Position numbers and translations under genes: made by a program
Shown here: piece after piece, positions 1 through 38,637 of the stretch
Numbering within the stretch: position 1 is the stretch's first letter
How the letters are laid out: every line of letters begins with the position of its first letter
IMG/VR virus record: IMGVR_UViG_3300035698_030246
Span: 1-39,103 of that record
Strand: one strand, 5' to 3'
DNA: 39,103 nucleotides
Source: a virus
The notes under the pieces: model-generated
Told to the model about the DNA's origin: nothing
The model's input: the letters and a program-made list of their open reading frames with translations, nothing else
The model's database searches: none

Positions 1-91
1 TGATGATTCTGATGATTCTGATGATTCTGATAAGTCTGATAAGTCTGATAAGTCTGATAAGTCTGATAAGTCTGATAAGTCTGATAAGTCT
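1..91 (+). repeat. 9-bp tandem repeat coding for Asp/Ser/Lys triplets
   Basis: Ten 9-bp units run from base 2 to base 91: three of GATGATTCT followed by seven of GATAAGTCT. They are in frame with the VWA gene and encode D-D-S and D-K-S triplets, a hydrophilic low-complexity segment. The array starts at or before the window edge, so its true length is unknown. The unit length is a multiple of three, so slippage would change linker length without shifting the frame. Confidence 0.95.
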
Positions 92-1480
92 AATCCATTT
101 CAAGCTTCTTCTATTGATGATTTTGATAGAGCAATAAATAATATTGTAGAGGAAAATAAATATGATAAAATTGAATATATTAATATTCAGGAACTTGATC
201 CAAAAAATGTGGTGATAGATTATAAAAAGTATTTGAAAATGATTGAAAAAATGTTAAACATTTCATCAAATATAGATGATGATTCTGAATTCATATTATT
301 TAGAAATAATTTTTTGCGGGGGAAGAAAAAGGATGTAAATCATTTATGGAAAGAATTTGAATTAAAAAGACAAGGAATGATTAATGAGAATATAAAAATT
401 GAAAAAACTGGTAAATTAAATCCAGATAAAATTTACCAATATATGTATAATGAAAATATCTTCATTAAAGGTGAACTAGTTCCTAAAGGTGTGAATCATG
501 GATTAGTAATCTATATTGATTTTTCTGGATCAATGAGAATGAATAGACGGATTGAAAATGCTATACTTCAAATAATTATTCTATCTGATTTTTGTCGAAG
601 GGCTGGAATTAAATTTGAAATTTATAGCTTTTCAAATAGTTCTTTTTTTAAAGACACAGAATTTTTATGGGAAGAATCAACAATACTTAAAGTATCTAAT
701 AATTTTCATATAGGAGAGCTACTTAGTTATAGAATGAGTGGTAATGAATATAAGAATGCTGTTAATCTTTTGATTAAGGGTGCATATATACGATCATTTC
801 AAATTTTAGTTTATGCTTCAACTACTCCAATTTTCCAAACTCTTTTAACTACTCCTAAGATTGTTAAAAGACTTCAAAATACTGGATGTGAAAAAATAAA
901 TGTAATTTTTCTCACTGATGGAGAAGGTGATTTAGTAATTGATGAGCATTGTCCAATAATTTATGTTGATAAAAAAACTAATAAACAATATTCTAATGAG
1001 ATTTTTTCTTTTAATAGAAAACAGTCTGAAAAGTCACTTTTTTCTTGGGTGAAAGATAAAACTAGAGCAAAAATGATTTGTTTTTTTCTTCAAGATTCTA
1101 TATCTTCTAAAAAGTATCAGATTAATGAAATGCGACAGATTATTATATCTCATTGTAGTGAGAATAGTATTAAAAAATTTATTGGAATAGATGTTCCATA
1201 TTCAGTTACTAGAGCTTACAGTTACAATTATCTTAATGATATTAAGGATTTTTGTAAAAAATCAATCAATTCTTCTGGATTGATTGAAGGAGTTGATTAT
1301 GATTCTATCTTTTTTATTTTAATGAATGATTATGAAAAAAATGATTTTGATGTTTTTACAATCAATGATTCTCATAAAAAGCAGACTAAATCATTGTTAT
1401 TTAAACAATTTAATAATTTTAATAAATCTAAATTTCAGAATCGCATTGTTTTGCAGAAATTTATTGATCTCATTAAATAG
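2..1480 (+). CDS. VWA-domain protein, CobT-like partner of the downstream AAA+ ATPase (5' partial)
   Basis: The reading frame is open from base 2, so the start codon lies outside the window; the GTG at 209 is internal. The visible 492 residues begin with D-D-S/D-K-S repeats. A von Willebrand A domain follows, with the MIDAS motif DFSGSM (bases 518-535, visible residues 173-178), a Thr-containing ASTTPI segment near residue 274 and TDGEGD near residues 305-310. These are the three metal-binding loops expected of a VWA domain. VWA proteins beside MoxR/CobS-type AAA+ ATPases usually act as adaptors or substrate-binding partners. CobT of aerobic cobaltochelatase is one example, but that specific function is not shown here. 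There is no signal peptide evidence because the N-terminus is missing. Confidence 0.8.
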   Translation, partial: DDSDDSDDSDKSDKSDKSDKSDKSDKSDKSNPFQASSIDDFDRAINNIVEENKYDKIEYINIQELDPKNVVIDYKKYLKMIEKMLNISSNIDDDSEFILFRNNFLRGKKKDVNHLWKEFELKRQGMINENIKIEKTGKLNPDKIYQYMYNENIFIKGELVPKGVNHGLVIYIDFSGSMRMNRRIENAILQIIILSDFCRRAGIKFEIYSFSNSSFFKDTEFLWEESTILKVSNNFHIGELLSYRMSGNEYKNAVNLLIKGAYIRSFQILVYASTTPIFQTLLTTPKIVKRLQNTGCEKINVIFLTDGEGDLVIDEHCPIIYVDKKTNKQYSNEIFSFNRKQSEKSLFSWVKDKTRAKMICFFLQDSISSKKYQINEMRQIIISHCSENSIKKFIGIDVPYSVTRAYSYNYLNDIKDFCKKSINSSGLIEGVDYDSIFFILMNDYEKNDFDVFTINDSHKKQTKSLLFKQFNNFNKSKFQNRIVLQKFIDLIK

Positions 1481-1529
1481 ATGGTCAGTGATGTCCTTTA
1501 TAGTCCAAGTAAAAAATTTGAAAAAGTTC

Positions 1530-1558
1530 TTGACTTTTGTTGCCAATATTGGTAGAAT
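1530..1558 (+). promoter_or_regulatory. sigma70-type promoter upstream of the CobS-like gene
   Basis: TTGACT (1530-1535), a 17-bp spacer and TAGAAT (1553-1558) lie in the 129-bp gap before the AAA+ gene. This is one mismatch from consensus in each box. It differs from the conserved promoter cassette of the 30-38 kb region, so it may belong to another temporal class. Confidence 0.6.
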
Positions 1559-1609
1559 ATATAAGTGAGAGTGAAGAGAGACATTAACAGGATTGGATAA
1601 TTTTATATT

Positions 1610-2821
1610 ATGGCAAAAAAGAATCCAACGAATAGAAATCTTTTCATTGAAGCTTTGAAAAAGAGTAGTTGTGCAAATGATAAAACAATTTCTAAGGATT
1701 TTATTCGTAGTCTTGTTAAGGAACAAGGCCTTAATGATCCTTATTGGCTTTTAGTTAAAACTTTTGGTCCTCAATATAGAACTGAGGAAAAGAATTCTTT
1801 TTTCAATCCAATTTTTATTGAAGATAAAAAATGTTATCAGAATAATTCTTCAAAGAAAATTAAGGTGAAAAAAGTACAGAATGTCAATTCTATTAGTAAT
1901 GAAAATGTTACGGTAAATATGGATTCTTTTATAGAAGAGCAATTATATATTCCAGAGAAAGATAAAATGTATGTTAAGTGGGGTAGTTATAAAACTATTG
2001 AAGGTATTATTGATTCGAAAATGTTTTATCCCACTTTCATTTATGGGCTTTCTGGTAATGGAAAAACTCTAATGATTGAACAGGCTTGTGCTTCTCTTAA
2101 TCGTGAAATGATTAGAATTAATCTAACATCAGAAACTGATGAAGATGATTTGATTGGTGGATTTCGTCTTAAAAATGGCAATACAGAATGGGTAGATGGT
2201 CCAGTAATTGAAGCGATGCGACGTGGCGCAATTCTTCTTCTTGACGAAATTGATTTAGCTAGTAATAAGATTATGGCACTTCAGCCAGTATTAGAAGGTA
2301 AAGGAATTTACGTTAAAAAGATGAAAACTCAACATCTTCCACAGAATGGTTTTCAAATTTTTGCAACGGCTAATACTAAAGGAAGGGGTTCTGAAGATGG
2401 CCGATTTGCTGGTTCTCAAATATTGAATGAATCATTTTTGGAAAGGTTTTCTATTACAATTGAACAAGAATATCCCCCAGAAGTAGTTGAAAAAAAGATT
2501 TTGAATCAAATTATTAAAAAGTTTGAAAATGTTTCTGATATTGTTTTTCCAGTAGATCATTTAACAAAGTGGGCTTTTGTAATTCGAAAAGCTTTTTCAG
2601 CTGGTTCTATTGATGAAATTATTTCAACTCGGCGTTTAGTACATATCATTAATGGGATAGCAGCATTTGGAGATTCTAAAACAGTAATTCAACTTTGTAT
2701 TAATCGATTTGATGATGAGATTAAAGAAACATTTATGTCTCTTTATAGTAAAATTGATGATCAAATTAATAACTCTGAAGAGAATGTTGAAGAGAATGTT
2801 GAAGAGAATGTTAAATGGTGA
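1610..2821 (+). CDS. cobS-like: CobS/MoxR-like AAA+ ATPase
   Basis: This 403-residue protein has Walker A GLSGNGKT at about residues 146-153, Walker B ILLLDE at about 208-213 and a sensor region with FATANTKGRG. These place it in the MoxR/CobS branch of AAA+ ATPases. The approximately 130-residue N-terminal extension holds no motif I recognise. The C-terminus ends in three copies of E-E-N-V encoded by a 12-bp tandem repeat. Related genes are common in T4-like marine phages, where they are annotated cobS after the cobaltochelatase subunit. The VWA gene directly upstream fits a two-protein ATPase/VWA chaperone-like machine. A role in cobalamin synthesis to feed the B12-dependent reductase at 24.8-27.6 kb is attractive but only inferred; no CobN is seen in this window. 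Confidence 0.85.
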   Translation: MAKKNPTNRNLFIEALKKSSCANDKTISKDFIRSLVKEQGLNDPYWLLVKTFGPQYRTEEKNSFFNPIFIEDKKCYQNNSSKKIKVKKVQNVNSISNENVTVNMDSFIEEQLYIPEKDKMYVKWGSYKTIEGIIDSKMFYPTFIYGLSGNGKTLMIEQACASLNREMIRINLTSETDEDDLIGGFRLKNGNTEWVDGPVIEAMRRGAILLLDEIDLASNKIMALQPVLEGKGIYVKKMKTQHLPQNGFQIFATANTKGRGSEDGRFAGSQILNESFLERFSITIEQEYPPEVVEKKILNQIIKKFENVSDIVFPVDHLTKWAFVIRKAFSAGSIDEIISTRRLVHIINGIAAFGDSKTVIQLCINRFDDEIKETFMSLYSKIDDQINNSEENVEENVEENVKW

Positions 2822-14482: not shown

Positions 14483-16291
14483 TTGGATTATTCAGATATT
14501 GAATTTATAATCATTAAAAATTTAATGATTAATGAAACATATACAAGAAAAGTTTTACCATATTTAAAATCAGAATATTTTTCTGAACAATCAGTTAAGA
14601 CTTTATTTAATGAATCTAGGTTATTTATTGAGAAATATAATGATCTTCCTACAGAACAAACTTTGAAAATTGCTATTTCTCAAATTAATGATATTAATGA
14701 TTCTGAATTTAATAATTTAAGTCAAATGGTTAATAATATTTCTGAGAATGTTGAAATAACTCAAACACAAGAATGGTTATTAGATGAAACTGAAAAGTTT
14801 TGTAAAGAAAAAGCTATCTATAATGCTATAATGAGCTCAGTTAATATTATTAGCGATGAAAAAAAATCAGATCAAACTAAAGAAGAAATTCCTGGACTTC
14901 TTTCTGATGCTCTTTCAGTGTCATTTGACAGTCATGTTGGTCACGATTTTATTGAAGATGCTCAGGATAGATTTGATTTTTATCATAAAAAAGAATCAAA
15001 AGTTCAATTTGATCTTGATCTTCTGAATAAGATAACTAATGGTGGACTTCCAAAAAAAAGTTTGAGTGTAATAATGGGTGGAACTGGTACTGGTAAAACA
15101 ATTTTTCTATGTCATTTTGCAGCTGCAGCTATGATGATGGGAAAGAATGTTCTTTATATTACTCTTGAAATGAGTGAAGAAAAAATTGCTGAAAGAATAG
15201 ATGCTAATCTTTTGGGAGTAAAGATAACAGATATTACGGATCTTACTAAACCATATTTTGAAAATCGGATTAACAAATTGAAAGAAAAAACAACTGGTAA
15301 ATTGATAATTAAAGAATATCCTACAGCTGCAGCTCATGTAGGACATTTTAGACATCTTGCAAGAGAGCTTAAAATTAAGAAGGATTTTATTCCAGACATT
15401 ATTTACATTGATTATATTAATCTTTGTCGATCATCAAGATTCAAAGGAGATTCTTCAGCGAATTCATATATGTTAATTAAGTCAATAGCTGAAGAATTAA
15501 GAGGATTTAGTATAGAAGAAGCTGTTCCAATTGTTACTGCAACTCAAGTTAATCGTTGTTTGACATTGGATACTGCAGTCATTAAATGTGGAAAGAAGAA
15601 TGAATCTGTTCTAATCACAGAATTATCTATTGGGGATGAAGTATTAGGTAATGATGGTGGGAATACAGTTAAGAAGATATGGTATAATAAGTCTGATGTT
15701 TATGAGATTGAAACCAAAAGTGGACGAAAAATTCGATGTAGTGGTAATCACATGTTCCCAATCGGAGATCATTTAAAAACAATAGATGATGGAATGAAAT
15801 CTGGAGATTTTCTTTCTGTTTTTGATGACCTGATTGAAGATGAAATAGTATCAATCAAAGGAATTGGTGTCATGGACACAATAGATATTGAGTTGGATGG
15901 GAATAACTTATTTTACGCAAATGGAATACTTACACACAATTCTGGATTTGGTGATTCTGATGTTGATTTAACACACACTTCTGAATCATTTTCATTACCA
16001 GCAACATCTGATTTATTTTTAGCTATTATTACTAATGAAATTTTAGAGCAACATAATCAAATAAAAGTTAAACAGCTTAAAAATCGATATAATGATTTGA
16101 ATTTTCATAGAGAAATTTTATTAGGGATTGATAGGAGTACAATGAAAATATATGATGTTCCTCAATCATCCCTTGGATCATCTGGAAATGCAACAAATCA
16201 ATCTATAATTAAAGATAATAGAAAGATAAATAGTAAGTCACATGAAAAACATGAAGAAAAAATTAATAGATTAAGAACTCTTATACAATAA
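14483..16291 (+). CDS. 41: replicative DNA helicase (gp41/DnaB-like) carrying a mini-intein
   Basis: The precursor has 602 residues. The N-terminal domain resembles T4 gp41 (for example VSFDSHVGHDF near residue 150). The ATPase core has Walker A GGTGTGKT (199-206), Walker B in IIYIDYINL (about 305-313) and the ATQVNR motif that ends at the intein. Removing residues 359-486 leaves a 474-residue helicase, close to T4 gp41 (475). The hexamer unwinds the lagging-strand template and works with the primase encoded at 23.4 kb. Translation starts at TTG 14483, with TGGAGA 6 nt upstream; no suitable ATG exists. Helicase activity would require protein splicing. Confidence 0.93.
   Translation: MDYSDIEFIIIKNLMINETYTRKVLPYLKSEYFSEQSVKTLFNESRLFIEKYNDLPTEQTLKIAISQINDINDSEFNNLSQMVNNISENVEITQTQEWLLDETEKFCKEKAIYNAIMSSVNIISDEKKSDQTKEEIPGLLSDALSVSFDSHVGHDFIEDAQDRFDFYHKKESKVQFDLDLLNKITNGGLPKKSLSVIMGGTGTGKTIFLCHFAAAAMMMGKNVLYITLEMSEEKIAERIDANLLGVKITDITDLTKPYFENRINKLKEKTTGKLIIKEYPTAAAHVGHFRHLARELKIKKDFIPDIIYIDYINLCRSSRFKGDSSANSYMLIKSIAEELRGFSIEEAVPIVTATQVNRCLTLDTAVIKCGKKNESVLITELSIGDEVLGNDGGNTVKKIWYNKSDVYEIETKSGRKIRCSGNHMFPIGDHLKTIDDGMKSGDFLSVFDDLIEDEIVSIKGIGVMDTIDIELDGNNLFYANGILTHNSGFGDSDVDLTHTSESFSLPATSDLFLAIITNEILEQHNQIKVKQLKNRYNDLNFHREILLGIDRSTMKIYDVPQSSLGSSGNATNQSIIKDNRKINSKSHEKHEEKINRLRTLIQ
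15557..15940 (+). other. mini-intein in gp41 helicase (128 aa)
   Basis: The insertion follows TQVNR. It begins with Cys1 (CLTLDTAVIK), has a block B-like GNHMFPIG around residues 63-70 and an F block in VMDTIDIELDGNNLFYANG. It ends with the HN dipeptide before Ser+1 of the C-extein. Its length leaves no room for a homing endonuclease; no LAGLIDADG or HNH motif is seen. On removal the flanks join as TQVNR-SGFGD, aligning with the corresponding gp41 region. Block B lacks the usual TxxH threonine (S-G-N-H), a mild departure. Confidence 0.9.
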
Positions 16292-24441: not shown

Positions 24442-24840
24442 ATGGTAAATAATATTGATCATTTTAAGCTTTATAAAGAGTATGTTGAAAAGTGGATTGG
24501 TCTTCTAGGATTAAGAGACTGGGAATATAATATTAGATATTCAACTAATGAAGATGAATTTGCTAGTTGTGAATATAATCTAGATGGTAGAATTGCAATT
24601 TTTAATATTCGTAAAGATATTTCAAAACCAGATGATATGTATACTGGTGAAGATGGAATTACAGAAGATTATATAGAACGAGCAGCAATTGAAGAAGTAT
24701 GTCATTTACTTTTAATTGATGTAACAACATTAGTAACACAAAAAAAGAAAATTAAAGAACTTGATAAAGTTGAACATATTGTTATTAAACGATTAGAAAA
24801 TTTACTTATTAAATATTTGAAAGGGAAAGAAGTAATATGA
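24442..24840 (+). CDS. zincin-like protein with altered HExxH motif
   Basis: This 132-residue protein resembles small phage proteins of a SprT/zincin-like type: a WIGLLGLRDWEYNI start, a beta segment (ASCEYNLDGRIAIFNI) and a helix AAIEEVCHLLLID. In the relatives I recall that helix carries HExxH; here it reads E-E-V-C-H, so the first zinc-binding His is Glu. It may therefore be inactive or bind metal differently. The ATG of the ribonucleotide reductase gene overlaps its stop (ATGA). Confidence 0.5.
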   Translation: MVNNIDHFKLYKEYVEKWIGLLGLRDWEYNIRYSTNEDEFASCEYNLDGRIAIFNIRKDISKPDDMYTGEDGITEDYIERAAIEEVCHLLLIDVTTLVTQKKKIKELDKVEHIVIKRLENLLIKYLKGKEVI

Positions 24841-27611
24841 TAATTTCGAATGAATTTGTAAAAAAGTATAAAGATAAACAAGTTTCTTGGGGCTTTAATA
24901 ATTTAGGTTATATTATTTTCAAGAAAACTTATGCAAGACCATTAGAAAGTGGTGGTACAGAAGAATTTCATCAAACACTTCAAAGAGTGATAAATGGAGC
25001 TCAAGATGTTGGTGCTGATTATACAAAGAAAGAAGCTGAACGTCTTTTTGATTTAATGTTTAATCTTAAATGTAGTTTTGCTGGTAGAATGCTATGGCAA
25101 TTGGGGACAAAAACAGTTAAAAAGTTTGGTGGAAATTCTCTTCTCAATTGTTTTTTTATTGCGATTAAAGATATTGATAGTTTTTGTTTTCATATGGAAA
25201 ATTTAATGTTAGGTGGTGGTGTTGGATTTTCTGTTAGACGTGAAGATATAATGGAACTTCCAAAGATTAAAATAAATGTTTCAGTGATTTGTGATGATGT
25301 TGCTGATGCTGATTTTATTGTTCCTGATAGTAGAGAAGGTTGGGTAATGCTTTTAAGAAAAACTCTTGAAGCATTTTTTATAAACGGGAAACGTTTCACA
25401 TATTCAACAATGTTAGTTAGATCTGCTGGAACTCCAATTAAATCATTTGGGGGTATAGCTTCTGGTCCTCAAATTTTGAAAAATGGCATTGAAAATATGG
25501 TAAAGATTTTTCAATTGAGAGAAGGAAAAAAATTAAGATCTGTAGATGTTCTTGATATTTGTAATATTATTTCAAGTATTATAATTTCGGGTGGAATTAG
25601 ACGCAGTGCTTCAATTGCTTTAGGTGATCCAGATGATTTTCTTTTTTTGAGAGCTAAGAGATGGGAATTAGGAAAGATTCCTAATTGGAGATCTAATAGT
25701 AATAATTCAATATATACTGATGATTTTTCACACCTTTCAGAAGAATTTTGGAAAGGATTTAAGAATTCTGGGGAAGTTTATGGACTTTTTAATTTACCAT
25801 TATCTAAGAAATTTGGAAGATTAGGAGAACTTAGAAAAGATCCTGAAGTTGATGGAATAAATCCATGTTTAGTTGGAAAAACAAAAATTACAACACTTAA
25901 AGGTGAGGAAAGAATTGATAAGATTGTTACTGGTGATATTTTATTAACATATAATAATGAAACTGGTGAATTAGAATATGATGTTGTTCTTAAAGCTGGA
26001 CTTTCTAAGAAAAAAGCTAATGTTATTAAACTTGAGATAGATGATGGTTCTATTATAGAGATGACACCAGATCATAAAGTTTTTACAGAGAATAGAGGAT
26101 ATATTGAATCGGCTTCATTGACTAAAAATGATATATTAATGAAAATTGAAGATGATGAAACTAGTAAAAGAAAAATTGTGAAAATTACTTCTATAGAAAA
26201 TCAAGATGTATATGATATAATGATGAATAAAAATCATAATTTCTTTGCAGAAAAGATTTTGGTACATAATTGTGGAGAAGTAAATATTCCTTCTTATGGT
26301 GCATGTTGCTTAGGGGAACTTTTCCTTAATCGAATTGAATCTCAAAATGAATTAAATGAATGTAGTATGTTAATTTATAAAACATTAAAAGCAATTACAT
26401 TAATGAAATTTATTCATCCCGAAACAACTAGAGTAATGAATGAATCATCTCGTATAGGTATAGGTGTTACTGGTATTTGTCAATCTAAAGAAAAATTTGA
26501 TTGGCTTGATCCATGCTATAATAAATTGAGAAAATTTGATATTGATTATAGCAAAAAGAAGGGCTGGAATGAATCTATTAAAATTTCTACAATGAAGCCA
26601 TCGGGTTGTCAAATTCCTCAAACTATTATTAGGACATCAAAGGGAGAATTTTCTTTAACTGATATATTCAAGATGAATGACGTTGATCTGCGAGAAAAGT
26701 TAAATGATTATCGTGAATGGTATCCAGTAACAGAAGAAATATTGGTTGAAGATAAAAATAATAATTATCAAAAAATTACTAGATTGTTTATCAATGGTGT
26801 TGAAGAAACAATTAGGTTTACGATGAATGATGGAAGTGTTATTGAATCCACGTCAACCCACAAATTTCTAATGACTGATGGAGAGTGGAAAGAGGCTCGA
26901 TTTATTACAGAAAATGATGATTGGGAGACATCGGATGAGGTTAAAGTAGAAATCAAAATGTGTTATGTTAAAAAGGAGAAATTAAATAATTTCACTGTTG
27001 ATATTGAAGTTGAGAATACACATTCATATAGATTGAAAAATGGTGTAATTAGTCATAATAGTCTTTCTCTTCTTTCTGGATCAACTCCAGGAATTCATCC
27101 AGCGTTTTCACAGTATTATATTAGGCGTGTAAGAATGTCAAGTAATGATCCAATGCTTAATGTATGTAAAGATCTTGGATATCATATAGAACCAGAAGTA
27201 TTATTTGATGGTTCAGATAATTATATAACTAGTGTTGTTTCATTTCCTTGTGAATCTGGAGATAATGCAATTCTTTCAAAAGATATGACTGCAATTCAAC
27301 AAATTGAATTAATGATAGAAATGCAAACAAAATGGGTTGATCAAAGTGTGTCAATGACTGTATATTATAATGATGATGAAATTGATGGTATACGAAATTG
27401 GCTTAAGAAAAATTATAACAAATCTGTAAAAACTATTTCATTTTTGAAACATTCAGATCATGGTTTTGCTCAAGCTCCTTATGAAGAAATTGATAAAGCA
27501 ACTTATTTTAAAATGAAAAATAAGATTAAAGATGTTTCAGTTATTGATATTGATAGTTCTAGAGAATTGTTAAATATTGAATGTAGTGGTGGTCAATGCC
27601 CCGTTAGATAA
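24837..27611 (+). CDS. nrdJ: class II (adenosylcobalamin-dependent) ribonucleotide reductase with two mini-inteins
   Basis: The 924-residue precursor becomes about 638 residues after removal of inteins at residues 344-478 and 591-741. The extein contains SLLNCFF (Cys105), FSVRRED, SGGIRRSASIALGD, the active-site NP-CGEV junction (radical Cys479) and the KPSG-SLSLLSGSTPG substrate-binding loop. It ends with the C-terminal redox pair Cys916/Cys921 (CSGGQCPVR). This matches the monomeric B12-dependent ribonucleoside triphosphate reductase type (Lactobacillus RTPR-like) rather than class I or III; no NrdB or activase is nearby. It makes deoxynucleotides for phage replication and needs host adenosylcobalamin. 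No cobalamin riboswitch is visible. Confidence 0.9.
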   Translation: MIISNEFVKKYKDKQVSWGFNNLGYIIFKKTYARPLESGGTEEFHQTLQRVINGAQDVGADYTKKEAERLFDLMFNLKCSFAGRMLWQLGTKTVKKFGGNSLLNCFFIAIKDIDSFCFHMENLMLGGGVGFSVRREDIMELPKIKINVSVICDDVADADFIVPDSREGWVMLLRKTLEAFFINGKRFTYSTMLVRSAGTPIKSFGGIASGPQILKNGIENMVKIFQLREGKKLRSVDVLDICNIISSIIISGGIRRSASIALGDPDDFLFLRAKRWELGKIPNWRSNSNNSIYTDDFSHLSEEFWKGFKNSGEVYGLFNLPLSKKFGRLGELRKDPEVDGINPCLVGKTKITTLKGEERIDKIVTGDILLTYNNETGELEYDVVLKAGLSKKKANVIKLEIDDGSIIEMTPDHKVFTENRGYIESASLTKNDILMKIEDDETSKRKIVKITSIENQDVYDIMMNKNHNFFAEKILVHNCGEVNIPSYGACCLGELFLNRIESQNELNECSMLIYKTLKAITLMKFIHPETTRVMNESSRIGIGVTGICQSKEKFDWLDPCYNKLRKFDIDYSKKKGWNESIKISTMKPSGCQIPQTIIRTSKGEFSLTDIFKMNDVDLREKLNDYREWYPVTEEILVEDKNNNYQKITRLFINGVEETIRFTMNDGSVIESTSTHKFLMTDGEWKEARFITENDDWETSDEVKVEIKMCYVKKEKLNNFTVDIEVENTHSYRLKNGVISHNSLSLLSGSTPGIHPAFSQYYIRRVRMSSNDPMLNVCKDLGYHIEPEVLFDGSDNYITSVVSFPCESGDNAILSKDMTAIQQIELMIEMQTKWVDQSVSMTVYYNDDEIDGIRNWLKKNYNKSVKTISFLKHSDHGFAQAPYEEIDKATYFKMKNKIKDVSVIDIDSSRELLNIECSGGQCPVR
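25866..26270 (+). other. mini-intein 1 in nrdJ, at the radical cysteine (135 aa)
   Basis: The insertion lies between NP and CGEV. It begins CLVGKTKITTL, has block B-like MTPDHKVF (T-P-D-H) near residue 76 and an F block DVYDIMMNKNHNFFAEKILV. It ends with His-Asn before Cys+1. The +1 residue is the catalytic thiyl-radical Cys of the reductase. No homing endonuclease domain fits in 135 residues. The intact A, B, F and G blocks suggest it can splice. Confidence 0.93.
26607..27059 (+). other. mini-intein 2 in nrdJ, in the PSG/S loop (151 aa)
   Basis: The insertion lies between KPSG and SLSLLSG. It begins CQIPQTIIRT, has block B-like STSTHKFL (T-S-T-H) and an F block FTVDIEVENTHSYRLKNGV. It ends with S-H-N before Ser+1. 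No endonuclease motif is present. Its N-terminal sequence differs clearly from intein 1 (Q-I-P-Q versus L-V-G-K), so the two probably arrived independently rather than by duplication. Confidence 0.93.
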
Positions 27612-34372: not shown

Positions 34373-34452
34373 TTTAATGAAAAATAGTTCTTGACATAGC
34401 ACAGAAAATGCTCTATAATATATACAGAAAGATTGAGAAGGGGAGATTTAAT
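34373..34452 (+). promoter_or_regulatory. promoter cassette 4 upstream of rtcB, class B
   Basis: AATGAAAAATAGTTC precedes TTGACA (34391-34396), a 17-bp spacer and TATAAT (34414-34419), then ACAGAAAGATTGAGAAGGGG, which supplies the ribosome site for the ATG at 34453. It is nearly identical to cassette 3, including the TTAATG upstream of the element. Confidence 0.85.
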
Positions 34453-35610
34453 ATGTATCATATGATAGATAAAATTCCAATATGGTCATCTTCAGAAGAT
34501 ATATCTATTGAAGCTATAGATCAAACTAAAAGATGTCTTAAAGATGGTATGAGAGCTGCCATAATGGGAGATTATCATAAGGGATATTCTCAAGCTATTG
34601 GTACTGTTATAGCATATAAAAATATGATTTCTGTATCTGGCGTTGGATATGATATTTCTTGTGGAAATAAATGTATTCGATTAGCTAATGTATCTGAAAA
34701 TGATGTTCGTGAAAATATTGAAGATATTATGAATGAAATTTATTTCAAGATTTCTTTTGGAGCTGGTATTCCTAATAAAGAAAAAGTTGATCATGCAATT
34801 TTTTATGATCCAATGTGGCAATCTGAAGATGCTCTTAAGAATCTTTTAGATGTATCTAGAAATCAAATTGGTACTATTGGTTCTGGAAATCACTTTATTG
34901 ATATTTTCATTGATGAATCTGGTTCTGTGTGGTGTGGAATTCATTGTGGATCTAGGAAATTAGGACATTCAATAGCTTCTTATTTTTTGAAAGCTGCTGG
35001 TGCTAAGAATGGAATGGATGTTGGTCCCTGTCTTTTAGAAGAAAATTCTAATCTTGGTTCAAGGTATATAAATTGTATGAATCTAGCTGGAAAATATGCT
35101 TATGCTTCTAGAGATTGGATTTGTGATAAGGTATCACAAATTATGGGAGCTCAAGAAATTGAATCAGTTCATAATCATCATAATTTTGCTTGGAAAGAAA
35201 ATCATTATGATGAAGATTTTTGGATAATTCGTAAGGGTGCTACTCCTTTGAATCCTAATCAAGATTCATTTGTTGGTGGATCTATGGGAGATAATTCAGT
35301 TATTATAACTGGTATTGATAATGCTGAAGCTAGAATGTCGATGTTTAGTGCTCCTCATGGTGCTGGGAGAAAAATGGGACGTATGGCAGCTAAGGGGAAG
35401 ATTGCTAAAGATGGTACTGTCAAGAGAGTTGGAAAAATTTCTAGAGAAATGATGTATTCTTGGTTGTTCGAAAAGGGAGTTTATTTGGTTGGAGGTGATG
35501 TTGATGAAAGCCCACAAGCTTATAAAAGGCTTGATGAAGTTATGAATAATCATAGTGGATATATTAAGATCAAGCATACTCTTTCTCCTATAGGAGTAGC
35601 TATGGCTTAA
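34453..35610 (+). CDS. rtcB: RtcB RNA ligase
   Basis: The start at the ATG at 34453 gives a 385-residue protein. It has GDYHKGYSQAIGTVIAY, GVGYDISCGNKCIR (metal-binding Asp/Cys), GTIGSGNHFI, CGIHCGSRKLGH, VHNHHNFAW and SAPHGAGRKMGR with the GMP-accepting His. All these are diagnostic of RtcB, which joins 2',3'-cyclic-phosphate RNA ends to 5'-OH ends using GTP and Mn2+. In phages it can repair tRNAs cut by host anticodon nucleases. The tRNA genes 0.9-3 kb downstream fit that role. Confidence 0.94.
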   Translation: MYHMIDKIPIWSSSEDISIEAIDQTKRCLKDGMRAAIMGDYHKGYSQAIGTVIAYKNMISVSGVGYDISCGNKCIRLANVSENDVRENIEDIMNEIYFKISFGAGIPNKEKVDHAIFYDPMWQSEDALKNLLDVSRNQIGTIGSGNHFIDIFIDESGSVWCGIHCGSRKLGHSIASYFLKAAGAKNGMDVGPCLLEENSNLGSRYINCMNLAGKYAYASRDWICDKVSQIMGAQEIESVHNHHNFAWKENHYDEDFWIIRKGATPLNPNQDSFVGGSMGDNSVIITGIDNAEARMSMFSAPHGAGRKMGRMAAKGKIAKDGTVKRVGKISREMMYSWLFEKGVYLVGGDVDESPQAYKRLDEVMNNHSGYIKIKHTLSPIGVAMA

Positions 35611-36472: not shown

Positions 36473-36570
36473 TTTAGTGAATAGCTGCGAAGTAGCTCAA
36501 TTGGTAGAGCACTTAACTGTTAATTAAGGGGTTTCTGGATCGTAACCAGACTTCGCAGCTATTCACTAAA
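36473..36570 (+). repeat. 20-bp perfect inverted repeat enclosing tRNA-Asn
   Basis: The left arm, TTTAGTGAATAGCTGCGAAG (36473-36492), and the right arm, CTTCGCAGCTATTCACTAAA (36551-36570), are exact reverse complements. The inner 7 bp are the tRNA acceptor stem; the outer 13 bp extend it. The whole would fold as a tRNA on a 20-bp helical stalk. Confidence 0.97.
36486..36558 (+). tRNA. tRNA-Asn(GUU)
   Basis: The cloverleaf is readable: acceptor TGCGAAG/CTTCGCA, D-arm GCTC...GAGC, anticodon arm CTTAA-CTGTTAA-TTAAG (anticodon GTT), variable GGGTT and T-stem TCTGG/CCAGA. The T-loop is ATCGTAA, so the normal T54 and A58 appear exchanged (A54, T58). CCA is not encoded. The acceptor stem continues outward for 13 more base pairs. 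Confidence 0.85.
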
Positions 36571-36577
36571 ATAATGT

Positions 36578-36653
36578 GGGTGTGTAGCTCAGTTGGTAGA
36601 GCAGGAGTCTTTTAAGCTCTTGGTCGTGAGTTCAATTCTCACCGCACTCACCA
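36578..36653 (+). tRNA. tRNA-Lys(UUU)
   Basis: Acceptor GGGTGTG/CGCACTC (two wobble pairs), D-arm GCTC-AGTTGGTA-GAGC, anticodon loop CTTTTAA (anticodon TTT), T-loop TTCAATT, discriminator A and encoded CCA. It is 76 nt long and standard in all respects. Confidence 0.93.
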
Positions 36654-36654
36654 T

Positions 36655-36756
36655 CAACAACTTTCAATAACTTTAGAGATAGTTTTAAGATGTTTCAGGC
36701 ATTATGGAAAAAAGAATCTTGGAGGTGATTTACCTAAATGGGTATCTGAAGAATAA
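36655..36756 (+). pseudogene. possible C-terminal gene remnant after tRNA-Lys
   Basis: One frame from just after the tRNA to TAA at 36754-36756 reads LSITLEIVLRCFRHYGKKN and then GGDLPKWVSEE. This looks like real protein sequence but has no start codon or ribosome site. It may be the tail of a gene whose front was lost. The bases from here to the next promoter (36826) hold nothing else I can identify. Confidence 0.3.
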
Positions 36757-36805
36757 AAATTCAATTCAATTCAAATAATAATTATAAGTCTAATGATTAC
36801 AATAA

Positions 36806-36880
36806 TTTATAAAATACGATTTCTCTTGACATATAGTTAAAAATGCTCTATAATATACACAGAAAGATTGAGAGAGGAGG
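36806..36880 (+). promoter_or_regulatory. promoter cassette 5, class A
   Basis: TTTATAAAATACGATTTCTC (36806-36825), TTGACA (36826-36831), a 17-bp spacer and TATAAT (36849-36854), then ACACAGAAAGATTGAGAGAG leading to GGAGG. The upstream element is identical to cassette 2 over 20 bp. Confidence 0.85.
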
Positions 36881-36894
36881 ACTTGAAAGTATTT

Positions 36895-37338
36895 ATGAAA
36901 TCTAATAAATCATCTCGAAAAAAGCTTATGGAATCAATTAAAATCGCTATTTTTGCTCACGAAGGTCAATTTGATTTGAATGGTGATTTATATATTCTTC
37001 ATCCATTATCTGTTATGAATTCTGTTCAGGGAGATTTACAAAAATCTGTTGCAGTGTTACATGATGTTATTGAAGATACTAATATTTCAGAAGATTTTTT
37101 AAGATCACGAGTTGGTGAAGAAATTGCTAGTTTAGTATCTGTATTAAGTCATAATAAGAATGAATCTTATGATGAATACATTAAAAGAGTATCTATATAT
37201 CCAATTGCTGTAGATGTTAAGATATCTGATTTGATAGATAATTTAAAGGAATCAAGAAAACTTTTGAAAACTGAATCTTCTGAAAATCGAAGAATTAAAT
37301 ATAAAAAGGCTTTAATTATCTTAAGAAGTTCTTCTTAA
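36895..37338 (+). CDS. HD-domain (p)ppGpp hydrolase-like protein (MESH1/RelA-SpoT hydrolase type)
   Basis: With the ATG at 36895 the protein has 147 residues. It shows the RSH-hydrolase metal site: His22 in FAHEGQ, His36 in ILHPLSV, His56-Asp57 in VLHDVIED with Glu60-Asp61, and the later VKISDLIDNL Asp. These match small alarmone hydrolases that remove the 3' pyrophosphate from (p)ppGpp. It would shut down the stringent response or reverse alarmone-type toxins during infection. TTG codons at 36868 and 36883 lie too close to GGAGG, so ATG is preferred despite a long spacer. A strong early promoter drives it. Confidence 0.82.
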   Translation: MKSNKSSRKKLMESIKIAIFAHEGQFDLNGDLYILHPLSVMNSVQGDLQKSVAVLHDVIEDTNISEDFLRSRVGEEIASLVSVLSHNKNESYDEYIKRVSIYPIAVDVKISDLIDNLKESRKLLKTESSENRRIKYKKALIILRSSS

Positions 37339-37384
37339 GGCTTCAATGTAAAATCATTTTAATTATAGAAAAGGAGAATGAATA

Positions 37385-37525
37385 ATGTCTTATCTTGAAA
37401 GTTGTTCGGATTTTTCAAATGAAGTCTCTGATGAAAATGAAAATGATTGGTATGAAGATGAAGATGAAGATGAATATCCTAATTGTGCTGATTGTCAAAA
37501 TGTTTATTGTTGTTGTGAATGGTAG
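37385..37525 (+). CDS. tiny acidic Cys-rich protein, 46 residues
   Basis: The ATG at 37385 follows a strong AAAAGGAG. The product has an acidic middle (YEDEDEDEYPN) and a Cys-dense end (CADCQNVYCCCEW) that could bind one zinc ion. No family is recognised. Composition and the good ribosome site argue for a real gene. Confidence 0.5.
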   Translation: MSYLESCSDFSNEVSDENENDWYEDEDEDEYPNCADCQNVYCCCEW

Positions 37526-37536
37526 ATTTTAAAAGT

Positions 37537-37638
37537 GGAAGGGTGCCCGAGTGGTTAAAGGGGATGGGTTTAAAACCCAAGGTTTTAAACCCATTGGGCG
37601 TTATGTCTTCATTGGTTCAAATCCAATCCCTTCCACCA
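37537..37638 (+). tRNA. tRNA-Leu(UAA)-like gene with a 14-nt expanded anticodon arm
   Basis: Acceptor GGAAGGG/CCCTTCC, discriminator A, encoded CCA, T-arm ATTGG-TTCAAAT-CCAAT and a long variable arm fit tRNA-Leu. A canonical arm would be ATGGG-TTTAAAA-CCCAT (anticodon TAA). Instead bases 37564-37594 form a perfect 14-bp hairpin (ATGGGTTTAAAACC, loop CAA, GGTTTTAAACCCAT). Removing 14 nt restores a normal 88-nt tRNA-Leu. The gene is 102 nt and may be non-functional or processed. Confidence 0.75.
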
Positions 37639-37673
37639 TCACAATTATGAATAATTTTAAAGGAGATGTTATT

Positions 37674-37841
37674 ATGAATGAATATAGAATTATTGATGAT
37701 ATTAAATCATATATTAAAGAACTTTTGAGTGAATATGAAGATGATTTCTCCAATGAATCAGATTATCGAAAAGGTTATAATGAATGCCTTAATATTGTAA
37801 TTGAAGATCTTCAAGATATAGTTGAAAAATATGAAGATTAA
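37674..37841 (+). CDS. small acidic protein, 55 residues
   Basis: The ATG at 37674, 7 nt after AAAGGAG, is chosen; the longer frame upstream runs into the tRNA gene. The product is acidic and helical (IDDIKSYIKELLSEYEDDF, YRKGYNECLNIVIEDLQDI). No family is recognised. Confidence 0.55.
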   Translation: MNEYRIIDDIKSYIKELLSEYEDDFSNESDYRKGYNECLNIVIEDLQDIVEKYED

Positions 37842-37861
37842 ATTTGATACATAGGAAAGAT

Positions 37862-37935
37862 GTACGATTTCTCTTGACATATAGGTAAGAATACTCTATA
37901 ATATACATAGAAAGATTGAGAGAGAAAGGGAGACT
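37862..37935 (+). promoter_or_regulatory. promoter cassette 6
   Basis: TACGATTTCTC precedes TTGACA (37874-37879), a 17-bp spacer and TATAAT (37897-37902), then ACATAGAAAGATTGAGAGAG leading to AAAGGGAG. The proximal half of the class A upstream element is kept. Confidence 0.85.
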
Positions 37936-37936
37936 T

Positions 37937-38536
37937 ATGAAAAATAATGGATTTTATCTGAACGCAATTGAAATTCGAAAAGATGGATTTTATCTACTTT
38001 TTCGAAAAGATGAAGATTATGAAAATGTTATTTATGAAAAGATGGAAATATTTTCTTTTAAATATCTTCAATACATTTGTAAAATTAATGAGGGTGTAAC
38101 TCTTAGGGATATTTTGAGAACAGTAAGTGGGATGGAAATACTTGCTGATTTCATTACAGAATATTCTTTGTGCCCAAAAGAATTTCTTCAATATCATCTT
38201 CATTCACCTAAAACATTGGATACAAAAATCTCTCATATAGAAATTTTGAAATATATTGAAATCTGTGAAGATGATATTGAAATCTGTGATGATATATCGG
38301 CTATTATGATAAATGAATATTGTGATCATTTAGCAATAGGGCCAAATCTTTTCTATCTATTGGATTGTGTAGTTGAGATTAATTCAAATTGTTCAATTGA
38401 AAAATTTGAATCCGATATTTCCGATATTTATGTTGGCTTAGTTGAAGATAAGAATATTGATTTTTCATTTCTTGATATTTTACATATAATTTATTTTGAA
38501 ATGAGCTTTTATGGTAAACCTGCAGAAGATTGGTAA
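37937..38536 (+). CDS. unrecognised 199-residue protein
   Basis: The ATG at 37937 follows AAAGGGAGA and cassette 6. The protein is acidic, Ile/Glu/Asp-rich, with FYLNAIEIRKDGFYLLFRKDED at the start and an acidic ICEDDIEICDDISAIMI in the middle. No motif or family is recognised. Strong promoter control suggests an early host-takeover protein. Confidence 0.6.
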   Translation: MKNNGFYLNAIEIRKDGFYLLFRKDEDYENVIYEKMEIFSFKYLQYICKINEGVTLRDILRTVSGMEILADFITEYSLCPKEFLQYHLHSPKTLDTKISHIEILKYIEICEDDIEICDDISAIMINEYCDHLAIGPNLFYLLDCVVEINSNCSIEKFESDISDIYVGLVEDKNIDFSFLDILHIIYFEMSFYGKPAEDW

Positions 38537-38549
38537 AATTAAAATATTT

Positions 38550-38637
38550 GCCGATGTGGCGGAACTGGTAGACGCACAAGATTTAAAATCTTGTGGGGAT
38601 TTTCCCCGTGGAGATTCAAATTCTCCCATCGGCACCA
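38550..38637 (+). tRNA. tRNA-Leu(UAA)
   Basis: Acceptor GCCGATG/CATCGGC, anticodon arm CAAGA-TTTAAAA-TCTTG (anticodon TAA), variable arm with TGGGGATTTTCCCCG, T-loop TTCAAAT, discriminator A and encoded CCA. It is 88 nt long and a normal class II tRNA. It decodes UUA, the leucine codon expected to dominate in such AT-rich genes. Confidence 0.95.

What the first reader, a model, noticed from the sequence alone, without database searches (positions are those of the whole stretch)
25866..27059. B12-dependent ribonucleotide reductase interrupted twice by mini-inteins, one exactly at the radical cysteine
Seen: intein 1 sits between NP and CGEV so that its +1 residue is the thiyl-radical Cys; intein 2 sits in the KPSG-SLSLL loop. 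Both lack endonucleases and differ in sequence. Known: reductase genes are intein hot spots at conserved active-site motifs. Unspliced enzyme must be dead, so dNTP supply depends on two splicing events. With the gp41 intein, this gives three mini-inteins gating two key replication functions, a possible shared post-translational switch (redox is plausible with Cys1/Cys+1).
Basis: partly seen in the sequence, partly recalled or inferred. Interest (0 to 1): 0.6.

Follow-up and report, generated by a model that had tools for sequence, protein, structure and literature searches.

The report
Twin mini-inteins in phage ribonucleotide reductase
A phage gene for a DNA-building-block enzyme is interrupted by two small self-splicing protein inserts, one right before its catalytic cysteine; both sit at insertion sites used again and again in other phages, mostly by split versions of the same inserts that carry a homing endonuclease gene, so they look like ordinary mobile elements and not a shared on/off switch.

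Summary
A 924-aa class II (B12-dependent) reductase, 24837-27611, contains intein 1 (25866-26270, 135 aa, NP|CGE) and intein 2 (26607-27059, 151 aa, KPSG|SLSLL). The +1 residue of intein 1 aligns with radical Cys408 of L. leichmannii reductase. The gp41 helicase has a third intein (15557-15940, 128 aa). All three keep class-1 splicing residues and lack endonucleases.

The 'shared switch' is not supported: three well-separated, site-specific lineages; +1 residues Cys/Ser/Ser; intein 1 has no cysteine besides Cys1. Both reductase sites are established homing sites, and their alleles are mostly SPLIT inteins, usually with an ORF (some endonuclease-like) between the halves.

Two less expected points. 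(a) Intein 1 and 44 others of 77 alleles analysed have Pro at -1, reported as incompatible with splicing; NrdJ-1 relatives sit one residue later, a register shift that happened at least three times. (b) Models allowing only contiguous-to-split change are rejected, and one relative (L343) carries the relic of a lost endonuclease: split inteins can re-fuse. Whether the window's inteins are re-fused is about even odds. The window element is a new member of a known kind in an interesting family.

The parts
24837..27611 (+). NrdJ precursor, class II (adenosylcobalamin-dependent) RTPR-type reductase with two inteins, 924 aa (638 aa after splicing)
25863..25865 (+). codon of the -1 residue of intein 1, proline (NP|C)
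   Evidence: literature on -1 Pro
25866..26270 (+). intein 1, contiguous class-1 mini-intein, 135 aa; Cys1, TPDH block B, YDI block F, HN end; no endonuclease
26271..26273 (+). radical cysteine codon of the reductase = +1 nucleophile of intein 1 (aligns with Cys408 of 1L1L)
26607..27059 (+). intein 2, contiguous class-1 mini-intein, 151 aa; Cys1, STSTH block B, VDI block F, HN end, Ser+1; no endonuclease
27582..27599 (+). C-terminal redox cysteine pair CSGGQC of the reductase
14483..16291 (+). gp41-type DnaB-like replicative helicase precursor, 602 aa (474 aa after splicing)
15557..15940 (+). intein 3, contiguous mini-intein of the gp41-8/gp41-1 lineage, 128 aa, TQVNR|SGF, Ser+1

Best explanation
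The reductase gene carries two ordinary cis-splicing class-1 mini-inteins at two established homing sites, and the helicase a third. Each removes itself by the standard route: acyl shift at Cys1, attack by Cys/Ser+1, Asn cyclisation, extein ligation. For intein 1 the attacking +1 thiol is the enzyme's own radical cysteine, so splicing restores the active site. They are remnants of mobile elements: their nearest relatives at the same sites are mostly split inteins, usually with a separate ORF (some endonuclease-like) between the halves. They persist because only exact deletion at these invariant codons would be tolerated. Shown: anatomy, sites, lineages, split relatives. Inferred: that they splice, that the precursor is dead, why they persist.
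For: Intact splicing motifs and HINT fold. Joined exteins restore a complete RTPR with the radical Cys408 equivalent and the precursor model's exteins match 1L1L. Same-site alleles: Thermus phages G20c, stolb1, TSP4 at NP|CAE and many viral contigs; Fletchervirus NrdA and LR756500 at the intein-2 site. Empty sites in close relatives. Tree: site-2 inteins one side of a branch 99/95*, gp41 lineage 100/99*, intein 1 inside a site-1 set 97/91*. In the first pairing, 26 of 38 distinct site-1 and 8 of 12 site-2 alleles are split, most with an ORF between the halves, some with endonuclease-like Pfam matches.
Against: No splicing was measured. Pro at -1 of intein 1 is reported to block the first splicing step (PMC13123727), so efficient splicing cannot be taken for granted. 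No relative above about 60% NrdJ identity was found, so selection on the inteins could not be tested. The endonuclease-loss history of the window's own inteins is not visible in their sequence.
Confidence: 0.9

Rival explanations
1. Shared conditional switch: the three inteins together gate helicase and dNTP supply in response to one signal such as redox state.
For: All three are contiguous and endonuclease-free in one genome. Conditional splicing is known for other inteins, e.g. two inteins of mycobacterial DnaB, one oxidation-sensitive (PMC6195587).
Against: Three separate lineages; different +1 residues; cysteines only at position 1 in intein 1, 1 and 119 in intein 2, 1, 11 and 61 in intein 3; absent from the nearest relatives.
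Confidence: 0.04
2. Intein 1 is a kinetic bottleneck: its native Pro(-1) slows the first splicing step, so active reductase appears with a delay. A timing effect need not be regulated and would concern intein 1 alone.
For: -1 Pro in intein 1 and in all NP|C alleles (40 distinct junctions). NrdJ-1, its closest solved relative, tolerates most -1 residues tested but not Asp and Pro. From memory: the 134-aa Mth RIR1 mini-intein, natural -1 Pro, spliced poorly in E. coli until Pro was replaced (Evans et al. 1999).
Against: The NP|C site is used repeatedly, so these inteins may be adapted to Pro. No kinetic data. The Mth RIR1 case is recalled, not read here.
Confidence: 0.3
3. Re-fusion: the window's mini-inteins (at least intein 1) are former split inteins whose halves were rejoined when the gene between them was deleted in frame. 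Compatible with the best explanation; it concerns origin, not present mechanism.
For: Contiguous forms are scattered among 61 split alleles (13 changes, at least 7 forced). Contiguous-to-split-only model rejected (lnL -50.9 vs -38.2 reversible; by 6.8 or more on 15 bootstrap topologies). P(split) of the parent node of window intein 1 is 0.88. L343 shows re-fusion directly.
Against: No relic start signal in the window's inteins. With equal branch lengths the split-to-contiguous-only model is rejected too, so change runs both ways. Forks around window intein 1 are weak (85/49).
Confidence: 0.45
4. Decaying gene: the interrupted reductase is a pseudogene, as suggested for some Campylobacter phage nrdA genes.
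For: Some phage reductases with several insertions were read as degenerating (PMC3653736).
Against: 924 open codons, catalytic cysteines and splicing residues intact.
Confidence: 0.04

Closest known systems
NrdJ-1 split intein (PDB 8UBS, from a marine metagenomic reductase)
   Same: Same family and fold as intein 1 (TM 0.83, 35% identity); groups with site-1 alleles.
   Different: NrdJ-1 is naturally split and sits one residue later (NPC|S, -1 Cys, +1 Ser; its flanks recalled from memory, matched by L280); intein 1 is contiguous at NP|C with -1 Pro, +1 Cys.
Thermus phage G20c/stolb1/TSP4 NrdJ intein
   Same: Exactly the same insertion point NP|CAE in a class II reductase.
   Different: G20c intein is 332 aa with LAGLIDADG_3; distant splicing domain in the tree.
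Mth RIR1 mini-intein (recalled, not tested)
   Same: 134-aa mini-intein in an archaeal reductase with natural -1 Pro.
   Different: Archaeal, thermophilic; sequence and exact site not compared here.
Campylobacter Fletchervirus NrdA intein and uncultured phage LR756500 (site 2)
   Same: Same PT(A/G)|T insertion point as intein 2; tree groups them.
   Different: Hosts are other reductase classes; the LR756500 allele is split with an ORF between the halves.
gp41-8 and gp41-1 split inteins
   Different: Both are split; intein 3 is contiguous.
Fractured genes (Dassa et al. 2009, not held here)
   Same: The arrangement of most relatives: N-half, endonuclease-like gene, C-half.
   Different: The window's inteins are single contiguous ORFs with nothing between the halves.

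Membership tests
Class-1 intein | Cys/Ser at position 1, block B His, block F, C-terminal His-Asn, Cys/Ser/Thr at +1 | tested here: met
   All three inteins
Class-1 intein | HINT fold | tested here: met
   Intein 1 model pLDDT 92, matches 8UBS, 1MI8, 4O1R; intein 2 by sequence only
Class-1 intein | Actual splicing | not testable with these tools
   Needs expression
Mini-intein | No endonuclease domain, contiguous | tested here: met
   135, 151 and 128 aa, open frame
Split intein (NrdJ-1, gp41-8 type) | Two separately translated halves | tested here: not met
   Single ORFs; most family relatives are split
Split intein (NrdJ-1 type) | Insertion register NPC|S | tested here: not met
   Window register is NP|C
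Class II RTPR (NrdJ, monomeric type) | RTPR sequence family, radical Cys, C-terminal Cys pair, insertion domain | tested here: met
   TIGR02505 E 2.4e-88 (297 bits, under its 340-bit cut-off; the precursor's match is broken into pieces by the inteins); PF21995; 1L1L 8e-84
Redox-switched intein | A second cysteine able to trap Cys1 in a disulfide | tested here: inconclusive
   Intein 1 has none inside, only Cys+1; inteins 2 and 3 have non-catalytic Cys; no biochemistry

The most novel reading that the evidence does not exclude
The window's contiguous mini-inteins, at least intein 1, are re-fused split inteins: a phage reductase once made from separate polypeptides around an endonuclease gene was stitched back by losing that gene, leaving a mini-intein at a proline-flanked site that current intein chemistry regards as incompatible with splicing.
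Probability: 0.45. Interest if true: 0.62.

Novelty: new member of a known kind. Interest (0 to 1): 0.42.

Why it matters
A review describes split inteins as arising by breaking mini-inteins, and mini-inteins as arising by losing an embedded endonuclease (PMC7765530); the relatives found here show the reverse step too, so a mini-intein can descend from a split one. The NP|C family is a natural collection of inteins that must work, or are slow, with Pro at -1, a known barrier in protein engineering. It makes two questions directly testable: how an intein copes with -1 Pro, and whether slow splicing delays phage dNTP supply.

Tried and rejected
The genome scan gave one cellular locus only. A relic start-signal test on the window's own inteins was negative; a suggestive DET/MET resemblance in intein 1 and an internal ATG in intein 2 were dropped for that reason. 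Likelihoods on bootstrap trees are invalid because those trees carry no branch lengths; one search replaces them. Residue 113 of intein 1 separates NPC|x alleles (Q/E in 20 of 22) from NP|C alleles (1 of 45), but only 3 supported independent pairs exist, so no causal claim is made. The whole-precursor model does not resolve the inteins. Dassa et al. 2009 is not held; no paper on Mth RIR1 with proline was found.

Full report
What is there. The window is a 39,103-base linear IMG/VR virus fragment with T4-like replication genes: clamp, clamp loader, polymerase B, UvsX, gp41 helicase, primase. ORF 24837-27611 encodes 924 aa. Intein 1 (135 aa) lies at 25866-26270 between NP and CGEV, and intein 2 (151 aa) at 26607-27059 between KPSG and SLSLL. 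Removing both leaves 638 aa that match the B12-dependent reductase of L. leichmannii (1L1L, 8e-84). The first extein residue after intein 1 aligns with position 408, the radical cysteine. Intein 3 (128 aa, 15557-15940) interrupts gp41 at TQVNR|SGF.

Integrity. All three keep a position-1 Cys, a block B His, the C-terminal His-Asn and Cys/Ser+1. Intein 1 gives a confident HINT fold (pLDDT 92) whose best PDB match is the NrdJ-1 split intein, TM 0.83. In a model of the whole precursor the exteins match 1L1L while the inteins are poorly resolved.

The sites are not unusual. Thermus phages G20c, stolb1 and TSP4 have an intein at exactly the same point before the radical Cys; a paper on Thermus virus reductases notes the likely G20c intein (PMC6459318). 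Scans of viral contigs gave many more: 40 distinct NP|C junctions were read. The intein-2 site is shared by Campylobacter Fletchervirus NrdA and others. Inteins in phage reductases are documented (PMC3653736), though only 8 of 18,717 marine viral reductases carried one in a recent survey (PMC12918982). The 80 closest NrdJ loci lack inteins at both sites, and 78 of 80 gp41 loci lack intein 3, two being partial.

No shared module. In an IQ-TREE of 53 inteins, site-2 alleles form one side of a branch (99/95*) with intein 2 inside; gp41 inteins another (100/99*) with intein 3 inside; intein 1 falls in a supported set of site-1 alleles (97/91*). The +1 residues are Cys, Ser, Ser, and intein 1 has no cysteine besides Cys1. 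The shared redox switch therefore lacks support, though only biochemistry can exclude regulation.

Most relatives are split. In the first pairing, 26 of 38 distinct site-1 and 8 of 12 site-2 alleles have the gene broken into an N-half, typically ending about 95-117 aa into the intein, and a C-half with its own start codon, most with an ORF between. Some of these ORFs resemble phage endonuclease I or restriction-type nucleases. This is the fractured-gene arrangement. Several reductases are broken at two or more sites, e.g. L308, L196, L184, L269.

Split inteins can re-fuse. In 77 site-1 alleles (61 split, 16 contiguous) the contiguous state is scattered: 13 changes, at least 7 forced by supported branches. 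Allowing only contiguous-to-split change gives lnL -50.9 at the best root against -38.2 for the reversible model. On 15 bootstrap topologies with equal branch lengths the gap is at least 6.8 (there split-to-contiguous-only is rejected as well, so change goes both ways). L343 (contiguous, 158 aa) nests within split L366/L372 (100/96*). Its N-half homology stops just before the other phages' stop codon, and homology resumes upstream of their C-half start codon, in frame. In L366 the ORF between the halves ends inside the C-half. Over this 48-base overlap L343 and L366 differ at 6 bases, all at third positions of that ORF's frame (4 synonymous), and 5 of 5 differing codons are nonsynonymous in the intein frame. 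Beyond the ORF's stop, differences return mainly to third positions of the intein frame. L343 thus still bears the mark of a gene it no longer has. L353 has a strong ribosome-site-plus-ATG relic in its linker (0 of 675 control stretches as good). Cautions: the pairing of halves rests on profile searches, sampling followed sequence patterns, and the tree has few columns.

And the window? Its intein-1 parent node is split with probability 0.88 under the fitted model, but support there is weak (85/49) and no relic is left. Re-fusion is about even odds for the window.

The proline puzzle. Intein 1 has Pro at -1. [quoted passage not shown] In the 77-row tree 45 alleles, the window's included, have Pro at -1, 22 incl. 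NrdJ-1 sit one residue later (NPC|C, NPC|S, NLC|C) and 10 have NL|C-type junctions; supported branches force at least three changes to or from the later register. So either NP|C inteins are adapted to Pro or they splice slowly. From memory, the Mth RIR1 mini-intein with natural -1 Pro spliced poorly in E. coli. This is the best remaining footing for the idea that splicing limits reductase supply, and it concerns intein 1 alone.

Verdict. Observation confirmed; shared switch not supported; the elements are new members of known intein families, in a family with two open, testable questions.

Noticed in passing
window 2-2821: CobT-like and CobS-like (PHROG cobalamin / porphyrin biosynthesis) genes in the same phage fragment as the B12-dependent reductase.
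   Followed up: no
window 34408-35610: RtcB-like RNA ligase gene; 36486-38637 holds tRNA-Asn, tRNA-Lys and tRNA-Leu.
   Followed up: no
window 37537-37635: A tRNA seen by Rfam but not ARAGORN, 99 bases with a long insert in the variable region and an anticodon loop UUUAAAA.
   Followed up: partly
L343:3840-3930 against L366:4685-4750: Contiguous intein with the out-of-frame C-terminus of a lost ORF (endonuclease-like position); all 6 differences at third positions of that frame.
   Followed up: yes
L184, L269, L196: A third reductase intein site (LLLGG|TGVGYSV or nearby) also occupied by split inteins, so one reductase may be made from several polypeptides.
   Followed up: no
window 26202-26204 (intein 1 residue 113): The position after YDI in block F is Q/E in 20 of 22 NPC|x alleles but in 1 of 45 NP|C alleles.
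   Followed up: partly
L092 (Roseobacter phage CRP-7): NrdJ broken after NPCAEIALRSNQFC with an ORF between the parts, possibly an intron with an endonuclease, close to intein site 1.
   Followed up: no
L338 (Candidatus Cloacimonadota): The only cellular locus found: a reductase with a contiguous intein at NL|C and a split one at the second site.
   Followed up: partly
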